Assembly (NCBI RefSeq): GCF_001304615.2
Contig: NZ_CP032683.1
Location: forward strand, 2,976,001-3,040,000
Length of the DNA stretch: 64,000 bases
Reading direction: 5' to 3'
Origin: Methanosarcina flavescens
GTDB taxonomy: Archaea; Halobacteriota; Methanosarcinia; Methanosarcinales; Methanosarcinaceae
Part shown: piece by piece, positions 19,337 to 26,257 of the stretch
Position numbering within the stretch: position 1 is the stretch's first letter
Layout of the letters: each line of letters begins with the position of its first letter
Made by a program: the position numbers and the translations under genes
The notes under the pieces: generated by a model
Told to the model about the DNA's origin: nothing
Databases searched by the model: none
Seen by the model: only the letters and a program-made list of their open reading frames with translations

Positions 19337-20218
19337 GTGATTCTACCGCTCGATGAAAATGAGGCTCTGGAACTGGGACTTAATCTGGTTGATGAGAAGA
19401 ATGAAGCCGAGATTAATGAAGTCCTTGACTATCTCTTCGAGCTTGTGTTGAAGTATGTAAAAGAAGGACAGGAAGATGACACAAAACGACTGATCGAATA
19501 TATTAAAAAGATAGGACAAGCGGCAGCTATTGCCGGGCTTGAGTCGATCGTTGTTAATACACTTCTACTTTTTCCTCAAGTTGCCAGAAAAGCATGCAAG
19601 CAGCATATGGAAAATGCACTTGTGAACATAGTACTCGCGTTTGGAGAAATTGGAAAGATCGCAGCGGGGAAAAAAATGGAAACTCCCGCAAAGATTGCAG
19701 CCTCCTGCCTTGGTGAGATGGGAAACACCGCGGCTTCCAGAAGAGCCAGAAAGGAAACAGTTGCAGTTATTTTTGCTCTTGGGGAAATTGGAAAAAGCGT
19801 TACATGGCAGAGATTGGGGGATGTCGCAAGCAGTACAGTAGCCCTTCTCGGGGAAACCGGAAAAGTTGCGGCAAGCCAGAAATTTGAGGATGCAGCATTG
19901 AATGCTGAGCTGTTGCTTCAGGAAATTGGAACAGGGGCTATTGAAAAAAACCTGAAAGAAACTGCGGATATAAGTGTTCGTTCTATCCGTGACATAGGAA
20001 AAACTGCAGACAGGCAGGGACTTAATAGGGCTTTACTCCAGGCAGCTTATTCACTTGAAACAATTAAATTTAATGCCGAGGATCGCTATCTGATGAGCGC
20101 ATCTATAATTGCCGAAGTGGCTCTCCTGCACTTTGAAAGATTGGAAATTCAAAGACTGGAAGACAAGCTGAATAAAATTTCCAGAGGGAGAAGGAAATAT
20201 CCAGGTATGGGATTATGA
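19337..20218 (+). CDS. 23-residue helical-repeat protein, paralogue A
   Basis: This 293-residue soluble protein has an N-terminal cap (about 1-47, ENEALELGLNLVDE) followed by about nine to ten tandem units of exactly 23 residues. The unit core is LGEIGKxAA, with an Ala-rich half before it and a Met/Leu-Glu pair at the end (for example ALVNIVLAFGEIGK). The last unit carries a distinct cap, YSLETIKFNAEDRYL, shared with paralogues B and C. The regular period predicts a helical solenoid, probably a protein-binding scaffold, but no function is known to me. The start is GTG at 19337, with GGGGG about 8 bases before it (19326-19330). It is the first of four paralogues in 7 kb. Confidence 0.75.
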   Translation: MILPLDENEALELGLNLVDEKNEAEINEVLDYLFELVLKYVKEGQEDDTKRLIEYIKKIGQAAAIAGLESIVVNTLLLFPQVARKACKQHMENALVNIVLAFGEIGKIAAGKKMETPAKIAASCLGEMGNTAASRRARKETVAVIFALGEIGKSVTWQRLGDVASSTVALLGETGKVAASQKFEDAALNAELLLQEIGTGAIEKNLKETADISVRSIRDIGKTADRQGLNRALLQAAYSLETIKFNAEDRYLMSASIIAEVALLHFERLEIQRLEDKLNKISRGRRKYPGMGL

Positions 20219-20399
20219 ACTTTTACGTTCAGGTTAATGAGTACTCTTATCAAGTCAAATTAAAGCAATCAGCTCAGTGTCAGTTAATCCAGGTGTAGAA
20301 TAGCAATATCTGCCTTCCTCCAGGGAAAGAAGTGAAGGAAAAATTATTTGGCTTTAAGATGCCTTTTCCCGAAATAAGAATTTAAGTGGGGTGTTCTGA

Positions 20400-21236
20400 A
20401 CGTCTATTTTAAACGAAGCTGGGGCAACAGACCTCGGGCTAACTTCAGTTAAGGATAATGATGAGCTTGGTGTGCTACGATCCATAGATTTCCTTACGGA
20501 ACGGGGGACCGAGTACATAAATAAGAAACTTGAGCCCGATGCAAAAAAGGCCATTATCAGTATAAGATATATAGGCAGCGCGGCTGTTTTCCAGAAAATG
20601 GAAACAGGGGTGTTTTTATCGCTTTTTTCACTTGGAAAGATGGCCAAAATTGCAAGAGAACAGGAGATGACCGATACCGGTTTAAGCATCCTTTATTCTC
20701 TATGCGCGATCGGGAAAGCGGCAGTTGGACAGAATATGGAGTCTGCTGTCAGGATTGCAGTCGCATACCTTGGGGAAATTGCAAATTCCGCATCGCTTCA
20801 GAAAACCGAGAGAGAGGCTCTGGTTGCGGCTCTGGCTATAGGGTCTATAGGAAAAGAAACTTTTGGACACCAGAGTATCAGAGTTCCGGGCAATGGAGGA
20901 TTTTTCCCTCCAAAATCATGTGTTATCTTATCCCAACCTCAAGGAAAAGATGTAATTGTCTTCTCAGGAGAATTTCCGGGCATTTTCAGCCTGTTTATTC
21001 AACAGGGAGCAGATACCGATATCCCTCTCAACACTCTTGCCCTCTCAGAAGATGAAATTTCTTACACGGACCTCAACGACTTCGAAAATATAATCATGAG
21101 AACTACCAATTCTCTGGATACGATGATTTTTGAGGTTAAAGAAAGGTTTTTAATAAGTCACATGCTTACGGCAAAACTTGCTCTGGACACTCTCAATGGT
21201 TCTGAATATATACATGAGGCTGAATCTCTGGATTAA
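20400..21236 (+). CDS. 23-residue helical-repeat protein, paralogue B, with ACG at the expected start
   Basis: This is a paralogue with about five regular 23-residue units (residues about 50-160 from 20400). A non-repetitive insert (about 165-230, rich in Pro/Gly, then acidic) follows, and then the shared C-terminal cap TNSLDTMIFEVKERFL. Similarity to paralogues C and D extends upstream of the first GTG (20472). The frame reads TSILNEAGATDLGL, aligning without a gap to MITLNEAEAVEVSL of C. The codon at the Met position is ACG (20400), preceded by GGGGTG at six bases. Either ACG is used, the start has been lost and GTG 20472 serves, or the base is a sequencing error. Confidence 0.65.
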   Translation, partial: TSILNEAGATDLGLTSVKDNDELGVLRSIDFLTERGTEYINKKLEPDAKKAIISIRYIGSAAVFQKMETGVFLSLFSLGKMAKIAREQEMTDTGLSILYSLCAIGKAAVGQNMESAVRIAVAYLGEIANSASLQKTEREALVAALAIGSIGKETFGHQSIRVPGNGGFFPPKSCVILSQPQGKDVIVFSGEFPGIFSLFIQQGADTDIPLNTLALSEDEISYTDLNDFENIIMRTTNSLDTMIFEVKERFLISHMLTAKLALDTLNGSEYIHEAESLD

Positions 21237-21784
21237 AAGTCTCGATAAAGCTTAATTGCAAGTTGCGCCAATAGCCTTGTCTGAGTTTCAGTCCAGGAAC
21301 TCCCTGGATTTCTGGTAAACTGTTAAACTCAACACAGCTGAAAAGGGTTTGAGTTACTGACCGGTTTTAAAAGCCAGGGTATCATCTTTTTTATAGACTA
21401 TATCGCCGAATAAAGAAAAAGCTATATACTAGCTATCTAGGATTACTTCACCGGCGGTTCTGCATGTCTCAATTATGATTTAACAATGAAATGCGAGTGC
21501 AAGCCATAACTTACAGAGTTGGAAAATGATTGAATAATGAATTTTCTACGCTTTTGAATTCTCAACTGATTACATTAAGTATTTACATTCGCAGACTACT
21601 GGAAGTAATGCTAGTTCTGATTATTCTTTAAAAATACTAAGAATTTTAGAATTTAAGGCTCATTTTTCAGAATATATATTTCCAAATGATTTTATTATTC
21701 CAATTTATTATTCTTACATGTTGTAATAAGATCGGGATTTATTTTTTACCGGGGTAACTTTACCAATCAGGGGGTTATTGGTTC
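21237..21784. other. Intergenic region, 548 bases
   Basis: AT-rich with no supported gene. It includes the promoter region of the NosD-thioredoxin gene and a GGGG ribosome site near 21771. Confidence 0.45.
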
Positions 21785-23287
21785 ATGAAAGGCGAGTTAG
21801 TTCAGATTATTCTCATAATTTTTCTTATTATGCTTGGGACAGCCGTAACCCAGGGTGATGCTTCTGTTATTATAGTAAATAACAGTGGGGAAGGAAACTA
21901 TACTTCGATCCAGGAAGCTGTCAGGAATGCACAGCACGGAGATACAATTCTTGTAAGCCCTGGAGTATACAGGGAAAATATAAAAGTAGATAAGGAGCTC
22001 ACAATTCTCTCATATTCTACTCTTTCAGGCAGCCAGACTAACCGTACCTATGTTATAGGCGCAATGCCTGGCAATGCTGTCTTCAATATCAGCACAGACA
22101 ACGTGACAATAGAAGGTTTTCATATTGCAGGAGATCCTTCTGGTACGGATAAGTACGGAAATGCAGGGTTTTACCTTGAAAGTGTGCGGAACTGTTCATT
22201 ACGCAATAACACGCTGATGCTTAATGATCTGGGCATTGTTCTCAAGAATTCTCAGGGCAACTATCTTGAAGGAAACCTTGTAAGTCTTGGAAGTAAGGGA
22301 ATTACACTTGACAATTCTGAGGATAATGTACTGTCAGATAATCTGGTATTGAGAAACGACCAGGGAGTTTCGTTGAACAATTCCTTTAACAATACTCTTA
22401 TTAACAATACTGCAGATTCAAACGAAATAGGTATCTTCCTGAAAATGTCACAGGGGAATGAACTTGCTTACAATCTCGTTTTGAAAAATAAATACGGAAT
22501 TCGGGGTCATTCGGCAGGGACAAATATTCTGACCAGTAATAATCTGTACCTCAACGACGTTGGAGTACATCTTAGCGATTCATCTAACAATTCACTCTAT
22601 GGGAATGAATTTATTAATGTGGCCAATGCCATAGATGAAGGAAGGAATATCTGGAACAGCAGTTCGGCAGGTAATTTCTGGGATAATCATGAGAGGACAG
22701 AAGCTGATGAAAACGGCATAATAGGCACTCCCTATGTTATTAACAGGACTAGAGGGACTGCAGACTATATGCCTCTGGTAAACAGGCTTTCATCAGATGA
22801 CAGCTCACAGAATCGGAACATCAAAGATAATACATTATCTATCCTGTTTAATAAGAAATACCCTCCGATTTTCCCGCGTACCCGGGAAAAAGGAATTGTT
22901 ATCGAGACGATTGAACTTGAGCAGATAAACAAATCCCTTGATGAAGGACCGGTTTTTTTGAGACTCGGAGCTGAATGGTGCAGCGCCTGCCAGTCCATGA
23001 GACCTATCCTTGATGAGCTGGCAGCCGAGTACGGAGAAAATGCAACGATTATGTCTATAAACATAAACCAGAACATCCAGCTTGCGACCTATTTTGATGT
23101 CGGCTATATCCCTGACTCTACCGTAATTATGGGCATTGAGAATGGAAAGTACATTTATATGCAGCCAGATGGGAATATAACCACAGACAGAGTCAGCGCA
23201 AGAATTGTAGGATTACAGAATAAGGATGAATATGAAAAAGTTCTGAAACACGCCCTTGCCTATGAAGAAAAAAGAAAAACCGTATAA
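21785..23287 (+). CDS. Exported NosD-like beta-helix protein fused to a thioredoxin domain
   Basis: A signal peptide or anchor (about 5-25) precedes a right-handed parallel beta-helix of the NosD/CASH type (about 30-340). Its repeats of about 23 residues include NTLMLNDLGIVLKNSQGNYL and SNNSLYGN. A linker of about 40 residues and a thioredoxin-like domain (about 385-495) follow, with WCSAC at the redox site and YIPDS carrying the expected proline. The fusion suggests an extracytoplasmic protein that binds a glycan or surface partner and carries out disulfide or heme/metal redox chemistry. I know no characterised protein with this pair of domains. It sits between helical-repeat paralogues B and C, all on the same strand, but gaps of 548 and 302 bases argue against a single tight operon. 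Confidence 0.8.
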   Translation: MKGELVQIILIIFLIMLGTAVTQGDASVIIVNNSGEGNYTSIQEAVRNAQHGDTILVSPGVYRENIKVDKELTILSYSTLSGSQTNRTYVIGAMPGNAVFNISTDNVTIEGFHIAGDPSGTDKYGNAGFYLESVRNCSLRNNTLMLNDLGIVLKNSQGNYLEGNLVSLGSKGITLDNSEDNVLSDNLVLRNDQGVSLNNSFNNTLINNTADSNEIGIFLKMSQGNELAYNLVLKNKYGIRGHSAGTNILTSNNLYLNDVGVHLSDSSNNSLYGNEFINVANAIDEGRNIWNSSSAGNFWDNHERTEADENGIIGTPYVINRTRGTADYMPLVNRLSSDDSSQNRNIKDNTLSILFNKKYPPIFPRTREKGIVIETIELEQINKSLDEGPVFLRLGAEWCSACQSMRPILDELAAEYGENATIMSININQNIQLATYFDVGYIPDSTVIMGIENGKYIYMQPDGNITTDRVSARIVGLQNKDEYEKVLKHALAYEEKRKTV

Positions 23288-23589
23288 ATGGAATCTCTGG
23301 CAAAGTAGACTTAATCTAAACTCGACTTCAAAACCTGAGATTCCATAAAAACGGAAAATACTCTTTTAAATGAACTGCCTCGATTACAAAATAGTAACAC
23401 TAATAATCTCGTAACTTCATAGAGTAAGCCGGTCTTTATTACCTGTACGGGCTATAGGCTCTACGCAAAATTTACAACCGATAGGATGCGAAGAATGCGA
23501 AGCAGCAATTGAAAAATTACAGGGAAAGACCTAGACTTAAAGTGTTATGACTTAAAGTGTTATATCATAAATAAAGAGGGGCAAAAAGG
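23288..23589. other. Spacer with a possible thioredoxin-fold remnant
   Basis: A frame from about 23420 to 23534 ends in PIGCEECEAAIEKLQGKT and stop. The C-x-x-C followed by EAA-x-x-KL looks like the start of a redox or metal domain. It has no start codon with a ribosome site, so it is either a gene fragment or chance. Confidence 0.3.
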
Positions 23590-24474
23590 ATGATTACATT
23601 AAATGAGGCAGAGGCAGTTGAAGTAAGTTTATCTGCAGTTGACGAAGGAGATGAGACCAGAGCTTTCCAGGCTCTGGACTCCCTTACAGGGATTGCGGCA
23701 GATTTCCTTTCTGAAAATGAAGAGGCAGATGCCGAGAGAGTTATTCTATCAATTGAGAATGCTGCACAGGCAGCTGCAGAAAGAGATATGGAACTTGTTA
23801 CCATTAATTCTATTCTGTCCCTCGGGAAACTGGCAAGGGCAGCAGCAGATAAAGGATTAGAGTCCGCCCTGGGCAGAGCCTTTATAGCAATAGGAAAATT
23901 GGGAGAAGCTGCTGCTGCACATTCGCTTGAAGCAGGCTCTAAGGTCGCTGCTTCAACCCTTCTGGAGATCTGGAAGTTTTCCTCCGAATCGTGGGATCAG
24001 GAAAAAGTAATTACCTTCTCTTTGCTTTTTAAAGAGATAGGAGCCTCTGCTGCCAGAAGTGGTGTGGAGGAAGTCGTGCTCAGTGCAGTTACAGGTCTAG
24101 GTGAACTCGGAAAAAAGACTGCAGCAGATAGCCTTGAACTTGAGACTGTCAGTACTCTGCTTTTGCTTGAGGAAATAGGCAAGCTTGCCGCAGAGAGTTA
24201 CTTTGACGAAGCCCTTAGTTCAACAGCGCTTTCCATAGAAGAAATTGGAAAAATATGTAAAAAGAAGGGGCTCAGTGACGCGGTCTTGCAGTGCCAGTGG
24301 GCACTTGAGACATTGCGCATTCAGGCTGAGGAAAAACTGCTAAATAACTCTTCAGTAGTGGCGGAAATGGCTCTGGATAATTTCACAGACATAGGCTATA
24401 ATGAATCTGAGGAAAAGTTGGAGAAGTTTCAGGAAATAAAAGCCCTTCAGAAAAAAATTCAATCTAACCTGTAA
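23590..24474 (+). CDS. 23-residue helical-repeat protein, paralogue C
   Basis: This 294-residue paralogue of A has the same plan: N-cap (LNEAEAVEVSLSAVDEGDE), about nine 23-residue units with cores such as LGELGKKTA and IEEIGKICKK, then the C-cap WALETLRIQAEEKLL. The C-terminus is a short charged helix (EEKLEKFQEIKALQKK). The units are Ala/Ser-rich and lack Trp except for two, as expected of packed helices. No signal peptide or membrane helix is present, so it should be cytoplasmic. The ATG at 23590 follows AAAGAGGGGCAAAAAGG, which supplies a ribosome site. Confidence 0.75.
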   Translation: MITLNEAEAVEVSLSAVDEGDETRAFQALDSLTGIAADFLSENEEADAERVILSIENAAQAAAERDMELVTINSILSLGKLARAAADKGLESALGRAFIAIGKLGEAAAAHSLEAGSKVAASTLLEIWKFSSESWDQEKVITFSLLFKEIGASAARSGVEEVVLSAVTGLGELGKKTAADSLELETVSTLLLLEEIGKLAAESYFDEALSSTALSIEEIGKICKKKGLSDAVLQCQWALETLRIQAEEKLLNNSSVVAEMALDNFTDIGYNESEEKLEKFQEIKALQKKIQSNL

Positions 24475-24487
24475 ATACAGGGCAGAA

Positions 24488-24530
24488 TGGCTATGTGATC
24501 AGGTTATTACAGTAACTTTTTACATAGCCA
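24488..24530. terminator. Inverted repeat after paralogue C
   Basis: TGGCTATGT (24488-24496) pairs with ACATAGCCA (24522-24530) across a 25-base loop that includes five T. It begins 14 bases after the stop codon, so a transcript-end role is plausible. Confidence 0.4.
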
Positions 24531-24664
24531 AATCTCTACATAACCAAAATCTTAATATAACAGAGTTTTGGTTCTAATTAACAGTCTGATTTACCCCAGC
24601 TTTACACTTTCTTATAACTTTCTATTTTAGATATAACTGCCTTGTTCTCGATTTTTCTTTCAGT

Positions 24665-24787
24665 TTTCGAATCATATCCGGGAACTTGAAAGATGCTCTA
24701 AAGAAGCACGGCTTGTCAAAGCTGAGAGAAGTGCCCGACAACTATTTGAAGATTTCTTACTTACTTGAAACCATAAGATTTAAATAA
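24665..24787 (+). pseudogene. Remnant of a fifth helical-repeat paralogue (C-terminal cap)
   Basis: A frame without start reads LKDALKKHGLSKLRE...KISYLLETIRFK and stops at 24787. It lines up with the end of paralogue C (KKKGLSDAVLQCQWALETLRI) and with YSLETIKF of A. Only the last unit or two survive, and the rest of the gene is gone or unrecognisable. This shows that the family has undergone local duplication and loss. Confidence 0.6.
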
Positions 24788-24912
24788 ATTATTGAAGTAT
24801 TTCTCTAAAACAAAATATCGCTTTGTTGATAAATGTTTGAGATTTCGAAGTGTAGTAACCGTATTCATCTTCCATATCTTGCTGTGCACTCAGTACTCAA
24901 CACAGTTGGTCA

Positions 24913-24951
24913 GGTAGGAGGAAGGTAAGGAGTTGAACCCTTCCTCCTACC
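24913..24951. ncRNA. Perfect 13-base hairpin, first of a pair
   Basis: GGTAGGAGGAAGG (24913-24925) and CCTTCCTCCTACC (24939-24951) are exact complements around a 13-base loop. The 3' arm can also pair with GGAGG at 24954-24958 (CCTCC-TACCAT-GGAGG), giving a possible alternative fold. With the next hairpin, 16 bases away, this suggests a structured RNA or regulatory leader. The strand is not determined. Confidence 0.45.
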
Positions 24952-24966
24952 ATGGAGGTTGGTCTT

Positions 24967-25004
24967 ACTCATGCAGGAGAATATGCCAGAAAACCTGCAT
25001 GAGT
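24967..25004. ncRNA. Perfect 11-base hairpin, second of a pair
   Basis: ACTCATGCAGG (24967-24977) and CCTGCATGAGT (24994-25004) are exact complements around a 16-base loop, followed on the forward strand by TTTTCTGTT. The forward orientation would place the T-run at the 3' end, like a small RNA terminator. Confidence 0.45.
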
Positions 25005-25383
25005 TTTCTGTTCATATGATATATATTATGTATGAAATGCATATAACTTTTTCTATTTTATCAATATGTAAATTACACGGATAGTTCATCCATACCATTT
25101 TTGAAAAGAATATAAGATAATCTTAAAGAGATAATATATAGTAACTATTTACTATTGATAAGCGATTTATCTAACCGGCTTATCTGTTTCATCAACTTTT
25201 AAAATCTCTATTTTTCAAACTTTTACATGTTCTAATCAGTTTTTACAGGTAATTTGCTAATTAAGCAGAACCCTAAAAGTTTTCTATTCATTTTCCGGCT
25301 TTTTAAAAGACTTTTTTAAAATAATTCCTCTGAAATTTCCAATATACTTTTAAAATTATAGGAAGCCTAATATCCAAGTAAAC

Positions 25384-25396
25384 CTATATAAATAAT
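25384..25396 (+). promoter_or_regulatory. TATA box before paralogue D
   Basis: CCTATATAAATAA fits the archaeal TATA consensus and lies about 60 bases before the ATG at 25453. That predicts a leader of roughly 35-40 bases. Confidence 0.5.
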
Positions 25397-25452
25397 TAAA
25401 CTCTTAAAATGCGAAAACTTTTTAAAGGATTTTACTGGAAAGGGGTTTTAAT

Positions 25453-26169
25453 ATGTTCTCAATGAACGAACAAAAGGCTATTGAACTTGGAGAATCTGGA
25501 GAGCGAGCGATAAGAGAACAGAATGAATATGATGCGCTCCAATTTGTTGACTATCTCCGGGAATTCGGGGAAGAGCTACTTGAGGCAGATCTAGAGAAGG
25601 ATTTAAAAAGAGTCATTATCTCAATCCGGAACATTGGCAATAAAGCTATCCAGAAAAAGATCGATAACGTTGCGTCCACCGCTCTTAGTGACCTTAAATC
25701 TCTTTCTGAAACTGCACTTGACAAGAACTTCTCAAACGCAATGTGGTCTTTTTCAAAAGCTATACAGGAGATTGGAAAAGGAGCAGTACAGTTTCAGATG
25801 CTTGAACCTGCCCAAATTGCTCTCGATGCGCTTAAGATGATAGGTCTGGGCGCAGTTGAAAAGAAAATGGAGGTCGTAACCTTGTGGACGACCCTGGCTC
25901 TTGAGGAAATGGCTTACCTTGCAAACCGGCAACAGCTTGAAGATTTCAACAAGGCAGCAATAGACGCCAGAGAAGAGATTATAGAAGCCTCAGAATTATC
26001 TAATTTCAAGACAAGAGAGGAAATAGAAAAATATCCCCAGCTCATTGCCCAGACTGTAAGTCAATATTCAGAACTCCAGAACCTCCAGCCTGCAGGCTAT
26101 GCAGCCAGGCCCAATGAAGAGTTCACAGAAGAGGAGTTCTTTGAGGACGAAGGAGATACTGGGGAGTAG
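25453..26169 (+). CDS. 23-residue helical-repeat protein, paralogue D, ending in TAG
   Basis: This 238-residue paralogue has the N-cap (MFSMNEQKAIELGE) and about six 23-residue units (for example KRVIISIRNIGNKA and FSKAIQEIGKGAV). It then departs from the shared C-cap into a disordered, acidic tail (EEFTEEEFFEDEGDTGE). The ribosome site is GGAAAGGGG at 25438-25446. The stop is TAG. Immediately after it the frame stays open for 11 codons (EPETEAAKKEK) to TGA at 26205, continuing the charged character of the tail. Methanosarcina can read TAG as pyrrolysine, so a 250-residue form is possible. Confidence 0.75.
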   Translation: MFSMNEQKAIELGESGERAIREQNEYDALQFVDYLREFGEELLEADLEKDLKRVIISIRNIGNKAIQKKIDNVASTALSDLKSLSETALDKNFSNAMWSFSKAIQEIGKGAVQFQMLEPAQIALDALKMIGLGAVEKKMEVVTLWTTLALEEMAYLANRQQLEDFNKAAIDAREEIIEASELSNFKTREEIEKYPQLIAQTVSQYSELQNLQPAGYAARPNEEFTEEEFFEDEGDTGE

Positions 26170-26257
26170 GAACCCGAAACGGAGGCTGCCAAAAAGGAAA
26201 AGTGAGCCCCTGATAATCAGGGAAATGAACCTGAGCTCATAAAAAATTTCTGACTGT

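What the first reader, a model, noticed from the sequence alone, without database searches (positions are those of the whole stretch)
19337..26205. Cluster of four paralogous proteins built from an exact 23-residue helical repeat
Proteins A, B, C and D share an N-cap of about 48 residues, then tandem units of exactly 23 residues with core LGEIGKxAA. A, B and C also share the C-cap SLETI-F-AE--L. The period is shorter than TPR, HEAT or Sel1 repeats and very regular across gaps. I know no described family with this unit. The genes lie in one strand order with a NosD-thioredoxin protein between them, suggesting a scaffold set that assembles or senses something together.
Basis: partly seen in the sequence, partly recalled or inferred. 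Interest (0 to 1): 0.8.

Follow-up and report, generated by a model that had tools for sequence, protein, structure and literature searches.

The report
Archaeal 23-residue single-helix solenoid proteins
Four neighbouring genes in a Methanosarcina genome encode rod-like proteins built from one 23-residue helix repeated over and over; they turn out to be soluble relatives of the inner, cytoplasmic half of an undescribed membrane-protein family of methane-making and methane-eating archaea, and probably act as protein-binding scaffolds.

Summary
Proteins A, B, C and D (19337-26169) are paralogues with a 23-residue period: lag 23 or 46 beats every lag in all or nearly all of 1000 shuffles per protein, and control proteins do not. 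AlphaFold gives protein A as 13 helices; each full unit is one 20-residue helix plus a 3-residue loop (pLDDT 92, pTM 0.88). No Pfam or NCBIfam model fits A-D. The closest solved folds are de novo designed helical repeats; natural HEAT/ARM proteins come after.

New here: the same repeat is the cytoplasmic half of 400-760-residue membrane proteins whose four-helix N-terminus is DUF2254 (38 of 38 members). They occur in other Methanosarcinaceae, Methanoperedens, ANME-1, Methanotrichaceae and Methanomicrobiales. A-D belong to an anchor-less branch: seven orthogroups, mostly 6-8 copies per Methanosarcina genome (22 of 22), older than the genus. NosD-thioredoxin is a recent neighbour, not a partner, and the cluster is not fixed.

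Best reading: cytosolic alpha-solenoid scaffolds descended from a membrane protein that lost its anchor. Their binding partner is unknown.

The parts
19337..20218 (+). Protein A (293 aa, GTG start): N-cap (residues 1-45), nine clear 23-residue units from residue 46, the last carrying the C-cap motif SLETIKFNAEDRYL
   Evidence: AlphaFold (pLDDT 92.2, pTM 0.88)
20400..21236 (+). Protein B (278 aa); probable ACG start at 20400 (ATG or GTG in other species); five clear units, then a ~70-residue non-repeat segment in place of units 7-9, then C-cap
   Evidence: purifying selection in codons 2-24
23590..24474 (+). Protein C (294 aa): N-cap, units in 23-residue phase (middle ones degenerate), C-cap ALETLRIQAEEKLL; acidic (52 D/E, 27 K/R)
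25453..26169 (+). Protein D (238 aa to TAG): N-cap with a 3-residue insertion, fewer units, conserved acidic tail PNEEFTEEEFFE; frame runs on to TGA at 26205 if TAG is read as pyrrolysine
26167..26205 (+). In-frame TAG plus EPETEAAKKEK to TGA: possible pyrrolysine read-through extension of D; relatives have CAG (Gln)
21785..23287 (+). NosD parallel beta-helix + thioredoxin-like protein between B and C: a neighbour, judged not part of the system
   Evidence: PF05048 E 1e-39, PF00085 E 4e-10; absent or decayed at this place in most relatives tested
24475..25452 (+). 978-nt gap between C and D, where relatives (G015, G003, G209) carry a fifth paralogue, H; no significant trace of H found here

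Best explanation
A, B, C and D are cytosolic alpha-solenoid scaffold proteins. Each 23-residue unit (consensus E-x-A-[AT]-x-x-A-A-x-[SA]-L-G-E-I-G-K-x-A-A-E-[KQ]-G-L) makes one 20-residue helix and a 3-residue loop, and successive antiparallel helices stack into a rod. The family is the cytoplasmic repeat domain of DUF2254-type four-helix membrane proteins of Halobacteriota, freed of its anchor and multiplied in the Methanosarcina lineage before the genus diversified. The likeliest mechanism is that each paralogue uses the surface of its stacked helices to hold one or a few protein partners, as HEAT and ARM solenoids do, and that the paralogues diverged to hold different partners. Shown here: period, predicted fold, paralogy, shared repeat domain with the membrane proteins, distribution, age and conservation. 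Inferred: cytosolic location (no convincing transmembrane segment), direction of evolution (from phyletic breadth), protein binding.
For: Predicted fold: (helices 23-42, 46-65, 69-88 ... 230-249, pLDDT mostly above 95). Membrane relative L064: (pLDDT 89.5, pTM 0.81; long helices at 15-43, 65-101, 114-139, 146-174, then single helices 23 apart from 277 on). Homology: profile-profile comparison of soluble and membrane sets, probability 99.6%, E 1e-23 over 207 columns, soluble residue 45 aligned with the start of the repeats after the membrane linker. DUF2254 in 38 of 38 anchored members. Lag 23 or 46 is the strongest in nearly all anchored members. Every relative examined outside the Methanosarcina group carries predicted transmembrane segments. 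Copy number: 22 of 22 near-complete Methanosarcina genomes have members, 3-10 rows each, mostly 6-8. Seven orthogroups, each with support 0.998 or more and with members in sister genera. Selection: dN/dS 0.29-0.49 for A-D against G016. Conservation in A orthologues peaks in units 5-8 and 10, polar positions included.
Against: No partner, no co-conserved operon neighbour and no expression data were found. Neighbours of E, F and of the anchored forms follow species relatedness rather than function. Conservation peaks could reflect folding rather than binding. The direction of evolution rests on distribution; an anchor could in principle have been gained. Low-complexity helical repeats can inflate profile E-values and can converge on similar consensus sequences. 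The best-matching solved folds are designed proteins, which tell nothing of function.
Confidence: 0.6

Rival explanations
1. They are ordinary, divergent HEAT/PBS-lyase-like repeats: a 46-residue helical hairpin whose two halves happen to look alike, so the family belongs to a known class and nothing new is needed.
For: The LGEIG motif resembles PBS-lyase HEAT repeats (recall); one anchored relative, L064, scores 35.8 bits against HEAT_PBS, over the cut-off of 20.9, though no single stretch passes. HEAT/ARM proteins such as symplekin, importins and PP2A-A align with Z 14-17. Lag 46 is as strong as lag 23 in several members.
Against: None of the 34 soluble members and only 1 of 38 anchored members matches a HEAT or ARM repeat model. 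In A, C and E lag 23 exceeds lag 46, adjacent units in A are as alike as next-but-one units (4.9 v 5.0 identities of 23), and every full helix is the same 20 residues long.
Confidence: 0.2
2. The soluble paralogues work with the anchored DUF2254 proteins: their rods stack end to end or side by side on the membrane-bound rods, so they regulate or extend a membrane complex.
For: The repeat domain is shared, and the window's own genome has a DUF2254 protein of 906 aa (L141:4845-7565).
Against: DUF2254 was found in only 4 of the 13 Methanosarcina genomes, far fewer than carry A-F; the window's copy has only a weak 23-residue signal (z 1.8); no linkage of the two was seen.
Confidence: 0.12
3. The rods polymerise into a structural filament or lattice rather than bind other proteins, as designed repeat proteins with this geometry can be made to do.
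For: Nearest solved folds include designed filaments (DHF46, DHF91: Z 19.1 and 18.5) and a designed closed ring (7rdr).
Against: The soluble members carry distinct N- and C-caps, which should stop end-to-end stacking; designed matches reflect geometry only.
Confidence: 0.08
4. The genes with the NosD-thioredoxin gene form one co-expressed assembly set.
For: Same strand and adjacency in the window, G016 and G002.
Against: NosD-Trx absent or broken at this place in most relatives tested; D unlinked in G029, G014, G025, G027; long gaps between genes.
Confidence: 0.04

Closest known systems
De novo designed helical repeat proteins (DHR54, DHR49, DHR14; 8fin; 7rdr)
   Same: Predicted geometry: evenly spaced, near-identical antiparallel helices. 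VIA Z 16.6-19.7 over 160-175 residues for DHR54, DHR49 and 8fin; 7rdr is Foldseek's best match (E 3e-5, TM 0.58).
   Different: Those are artificial; sequence identity 9-16%; this family is natural, capped and spread through archaea.
HEAT / ARM repeats (incl. PBS-lyase HEAT, PF03130)
   Same: All-helical solenoid; an LG-x-[IV]-G stretch; fold alignments at Z 14-17.
   Different: A HEAT unit is about 40 residues and two helices A and B (PMC11514114); here one 20-residue helix per 23 residues. No HEAT/ARM model matches A-D.
TPR (34 residues, helix-turn-helix; PMC11514114)
   Same: Helical solenoid used as a scaffold.
   Different: Period 23 not 34, and no TPR model matches.
DUF2254 (PF10011), 'predicted membrane protein'
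   Same: The anchored relatives carry its N-terminal membrane part (38 of 38).
   Different: Matches stop near model position 170 of 368; the rest is replaced by the solenoid. A-D lack the domain. No function is known to us; some members are predicted to be knotted (PMC11184937).

Membership tests
HEAT/ARM repeat proteins | Significant match to a curated HEAT or ARM profile | tested here: not met
   No match for A-D or the other soluble members; 1 of 38 anchored relatives matches HEAT_PBS
HEAT/ARM repeat proteins | Unit of about 40 residues made of two unlike helices | tested here: not met
   Top lag 23 in A, C, E; adjacent units as alike as alternate ones; 20-residue helices every 23 residues in two models
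HEAT/ARM repeat proteins | Solenoid fold | tested here: inconclusive
   Z 14-17 to several HEAT/ARM proteins, below designed repeats; the tool warns that helical repeats reach such values by common arrangement
TPR | 34-residue period and a TPR profile match | tested here: not met
   Period 23/46/69; no TPR profile match at E <= 1
DUF2254 (PF10011) | N-terminal membrane domain matching PF10011 | tested here: not met
   A-D have no PF10011 match and no four-helix membrane domain; met by 38 of 38 anchored relatives
23-residue solenoid family defined here | Tandem 23-residue units fitting one profile, one helix each | tested here: met
Anti-phage defence proteins (PADLOC) | Match to a defence-protein model | tested here: not met
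   No match for A-D, E or L064; one match for F at E 0.012, 11.8 bits

The most novel reading that the evidence does not exclude
Methanogens and ANME archaea have a natural repeat-protein class of their own, with a single-helix 23-residue unit like those of designed repeat proteins. It occurs as membrane-anchored DUF2254 receptors or channels and, in the Methanosarcina line, as a set of about seven soluble adaptors each dedicated to a different partner.
Probability: 0.3. Interest if true: 0.7.

Novelty: new variant of a known kind. Interest (0 to 1): 0.5.

Why it matters
It joins an unannotated core-gene family of Methanosarcina (members in every near-complete genome searched, mostly 6-8 copies) to a widespread uncharacterised membrane family of methane-cycling archaea, and gives both a fold and a testable role. 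The unit is a natural counterpart of designed helical repeats, so it may also interest protein designers. An HMM of the unit would annotate many proteins now called hypothetical.

Tried and rejected
Pfam, NCBIfam, PADLOC and PHROGs on A-D: nothing meaningful. PDB by sequence profile: only designed proteins at E about 0.1. Phage and plasmid collections: no match to A. Viral contigs: none for A, one weak DUF2254 locus for the anchored alignment, not followed. An anchored member against plasmids: only haloarchaeal DUF2254 proteins, matched in the membrane part and linker, not along the repeats.

Gene-neighbour clues: recurrent neighbours of the anchored genes (fibrillarin-type, ribB-type, PorB) follow species relatedness. 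A convergent porB next to both E and the Methanoperedens anchored gene looked like shared position, but most other genomes of the Methanosarcina group lack it there; rejected.

A decayed repeat gene at about 24660-24790 (short DNA matches to A and D): no significant translated match to H; not claimed.

Literature: no paper describing the unit; guessed M. acetivorans locus tags gave nothing.

Presence in other phyla could not be tested: a genome outside the window's phylum could not be used as search centre.

Full report
WHERE. The window is G000:C1:2976001-3040000 of a closed 3,283,688-base genome.

OBSERVATION. ORFs A, B, C, D are at the stated place, all on the + strand. B's listed start (20472) is too late: its conserved frame begins at 20400, where other species have ATG or GTG and the window has ACG behind a GGGGTG stretch. 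The finding's end, 26205, is reached only by reading through the TAG that ends D. The 23-residue period was tested by self-scoring at lags 5-79 against 1000 shuffles; for A the score is 0.41 at lag 23, 0.29 at 46 and 0.21 at 69, while no lag in any shuffle exceeded -0.23. B, C, D and the paralogues E and F behave alike and two control proteins do not. A unit matrix built iteratively from A's units finds nine unbroken units in A, five in B, and eight and eleven in two anchored relatives; the consensus of 59 units is E-x-A-[AT]-x-x-A-A-x-[SA]-L-G-E-I-G-K-x-A-A-E-[KQ]-G-L.

FOLD. AlphaFold with 34 aligned relatives gives A a confident all-helical model, each full unit one 20-residue helix and a 3-residue loop. 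Foldseek and VIA-align put designed repeat proteins first (DHR54, DHR49, 8fin, DHF46, 7rdr), HEAT/ARM proteins next. As the tool itself warns, such Z values for helical repeats may show a common arrangement only, not kinship.

FAMILY. A protein search found members in 44 of 60 related genomes. A profile search of 393 genomes of the phylum found 70 with members. All 22 near-complete Methanosarcina genomes have members. Seven orthogroups (A-F and H) are each well supported and reach outside the genus. The window lacks H; its genome holds E at G000:C1:2869252-2870130 and F at 296449-297330.

MEMBRANE RELATIVES. Outside that group the members examined are 355-760 residues long with an N-terminal membrane domain; Pfam calls it DUF2254 in 38 of 38 scanned. 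They were found in Methanolobus, Methanococcoides, Methanoperedens, Methanophagales (ANME-1), Methanotrichaceae, Methanoregula, Methanocalculus and Methanogenium. A second type (L038, L039, L069:6963-8549, L070) has a different, unnamed membrane part. The model of L064 shows four long helices in the membrane part, linker helices, then single helices every 23 residues. Profile comparison joins the soluble and membrane sets (E 1e-23, 207 columns), the soluble protein's first unit falling at the start of the membrane protein's repeats. The simplest history is loss of the anchor in the ancestor of Methanosarcina and its near genera, then duplication; this is inference from distribution.

CLUSTER. 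Gene order A-B-C-(H)-D beside trpG/trpE is seen in several genomes, but D stays with trpG while A-B-C lies elsewhere in some, e.g. G014. NosD-Trx is intact only in the window, G016 and G002 of those tested and is broken or missing at this place in most others. The cluster therefore reads as paralogues left near one another, not as a fixed set.

FUNCTION. No defence match, no enzyme-family match and no telling neighbour was found. A-D are under purifying selection (dN/dS 0.29-0.49), and A's orthologues are most conserved in units 5-8 and 10, polar positions included, as expected of a binding surface though folding alone could also explain it. A protein-binding scaffold is the best-supported inference; partners are unknown. 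D's conserved acidic tail and B's non-repeat segment suggest paralogue-specific contacts.

NOVELTY. Alpha-solenoids are known; this unit is in none of the libraries tested and in no paper found, and its pairing with DUF2254 appears undescribed in what was searched (only two papers in the library name DUF2254). Hence a new variant of a known kind.

LIMITS. Only the window's own phylum was searched with the profile; bacteria and other archaeal phyla were not. Transmembrane segments were called by a simple hydropathy scan, which also flags a stray segment in two A orthologues. Structures are predictions.

Noticed in passing
window:20400-20411: Gene B starts at ACG in the window and in several related species but ATG or GTG in others, behind the same GGGGTG stretch; codons 2-24 remain under purifying selection, so initiation at ACG looks real.
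   Followed up: partly
window:26167-26205: D ends in TAG where relatives have CAG, followed by the conserved tail EPETEAAKKEK and TGA; the genome has pylS, so pyrrolysine read-through is possible.
   Followed up: partly
L141:4845-7565: The window's genome has one 906-aa DUF2254 membrane protein whose long cytoplasmic part has only a weak 23-residue signal: perhaps a decayed or diverged anchored form.
   Followed up: partly
L098:528-2549: In a Methanoperedenaceae genome an anchored solenoid protein is fused in frame to CofC (F420 synthesis); real fusion or lost stop in an assembly not tested.
   Followed up: no
L038:5868-7574 and L039:5100-6806: A second membrane type without a DUF2254 match sits beside a PIN/Nob1-like gene and a phosphoribosyltransferase-like gene in both loci (the neighbour names are from reading the sequence).
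   Followed up: no
L166:2310-3899: An anchored member in another family of the phylum has almost identical consecutive units (LGKVGKAAAEKGLEDAT...), as if recently expanded.
   Followed up: no
L034:7315-7781: The NosD-thioredoxin gene survives only as fragments between B and C in G029.
   Followed up: no
L027 (G013:C105:333-1208): Gene A is broken by many stops in G013, so A is dispensable in at least one species.
   Followed up: no
window:24735-24783: Short DNA matches (about 82% over 22 and 28 nt) to parts of D and A in the C-D gap hint at a decayed paralogue; not significant by translation.
   Followed up: partly
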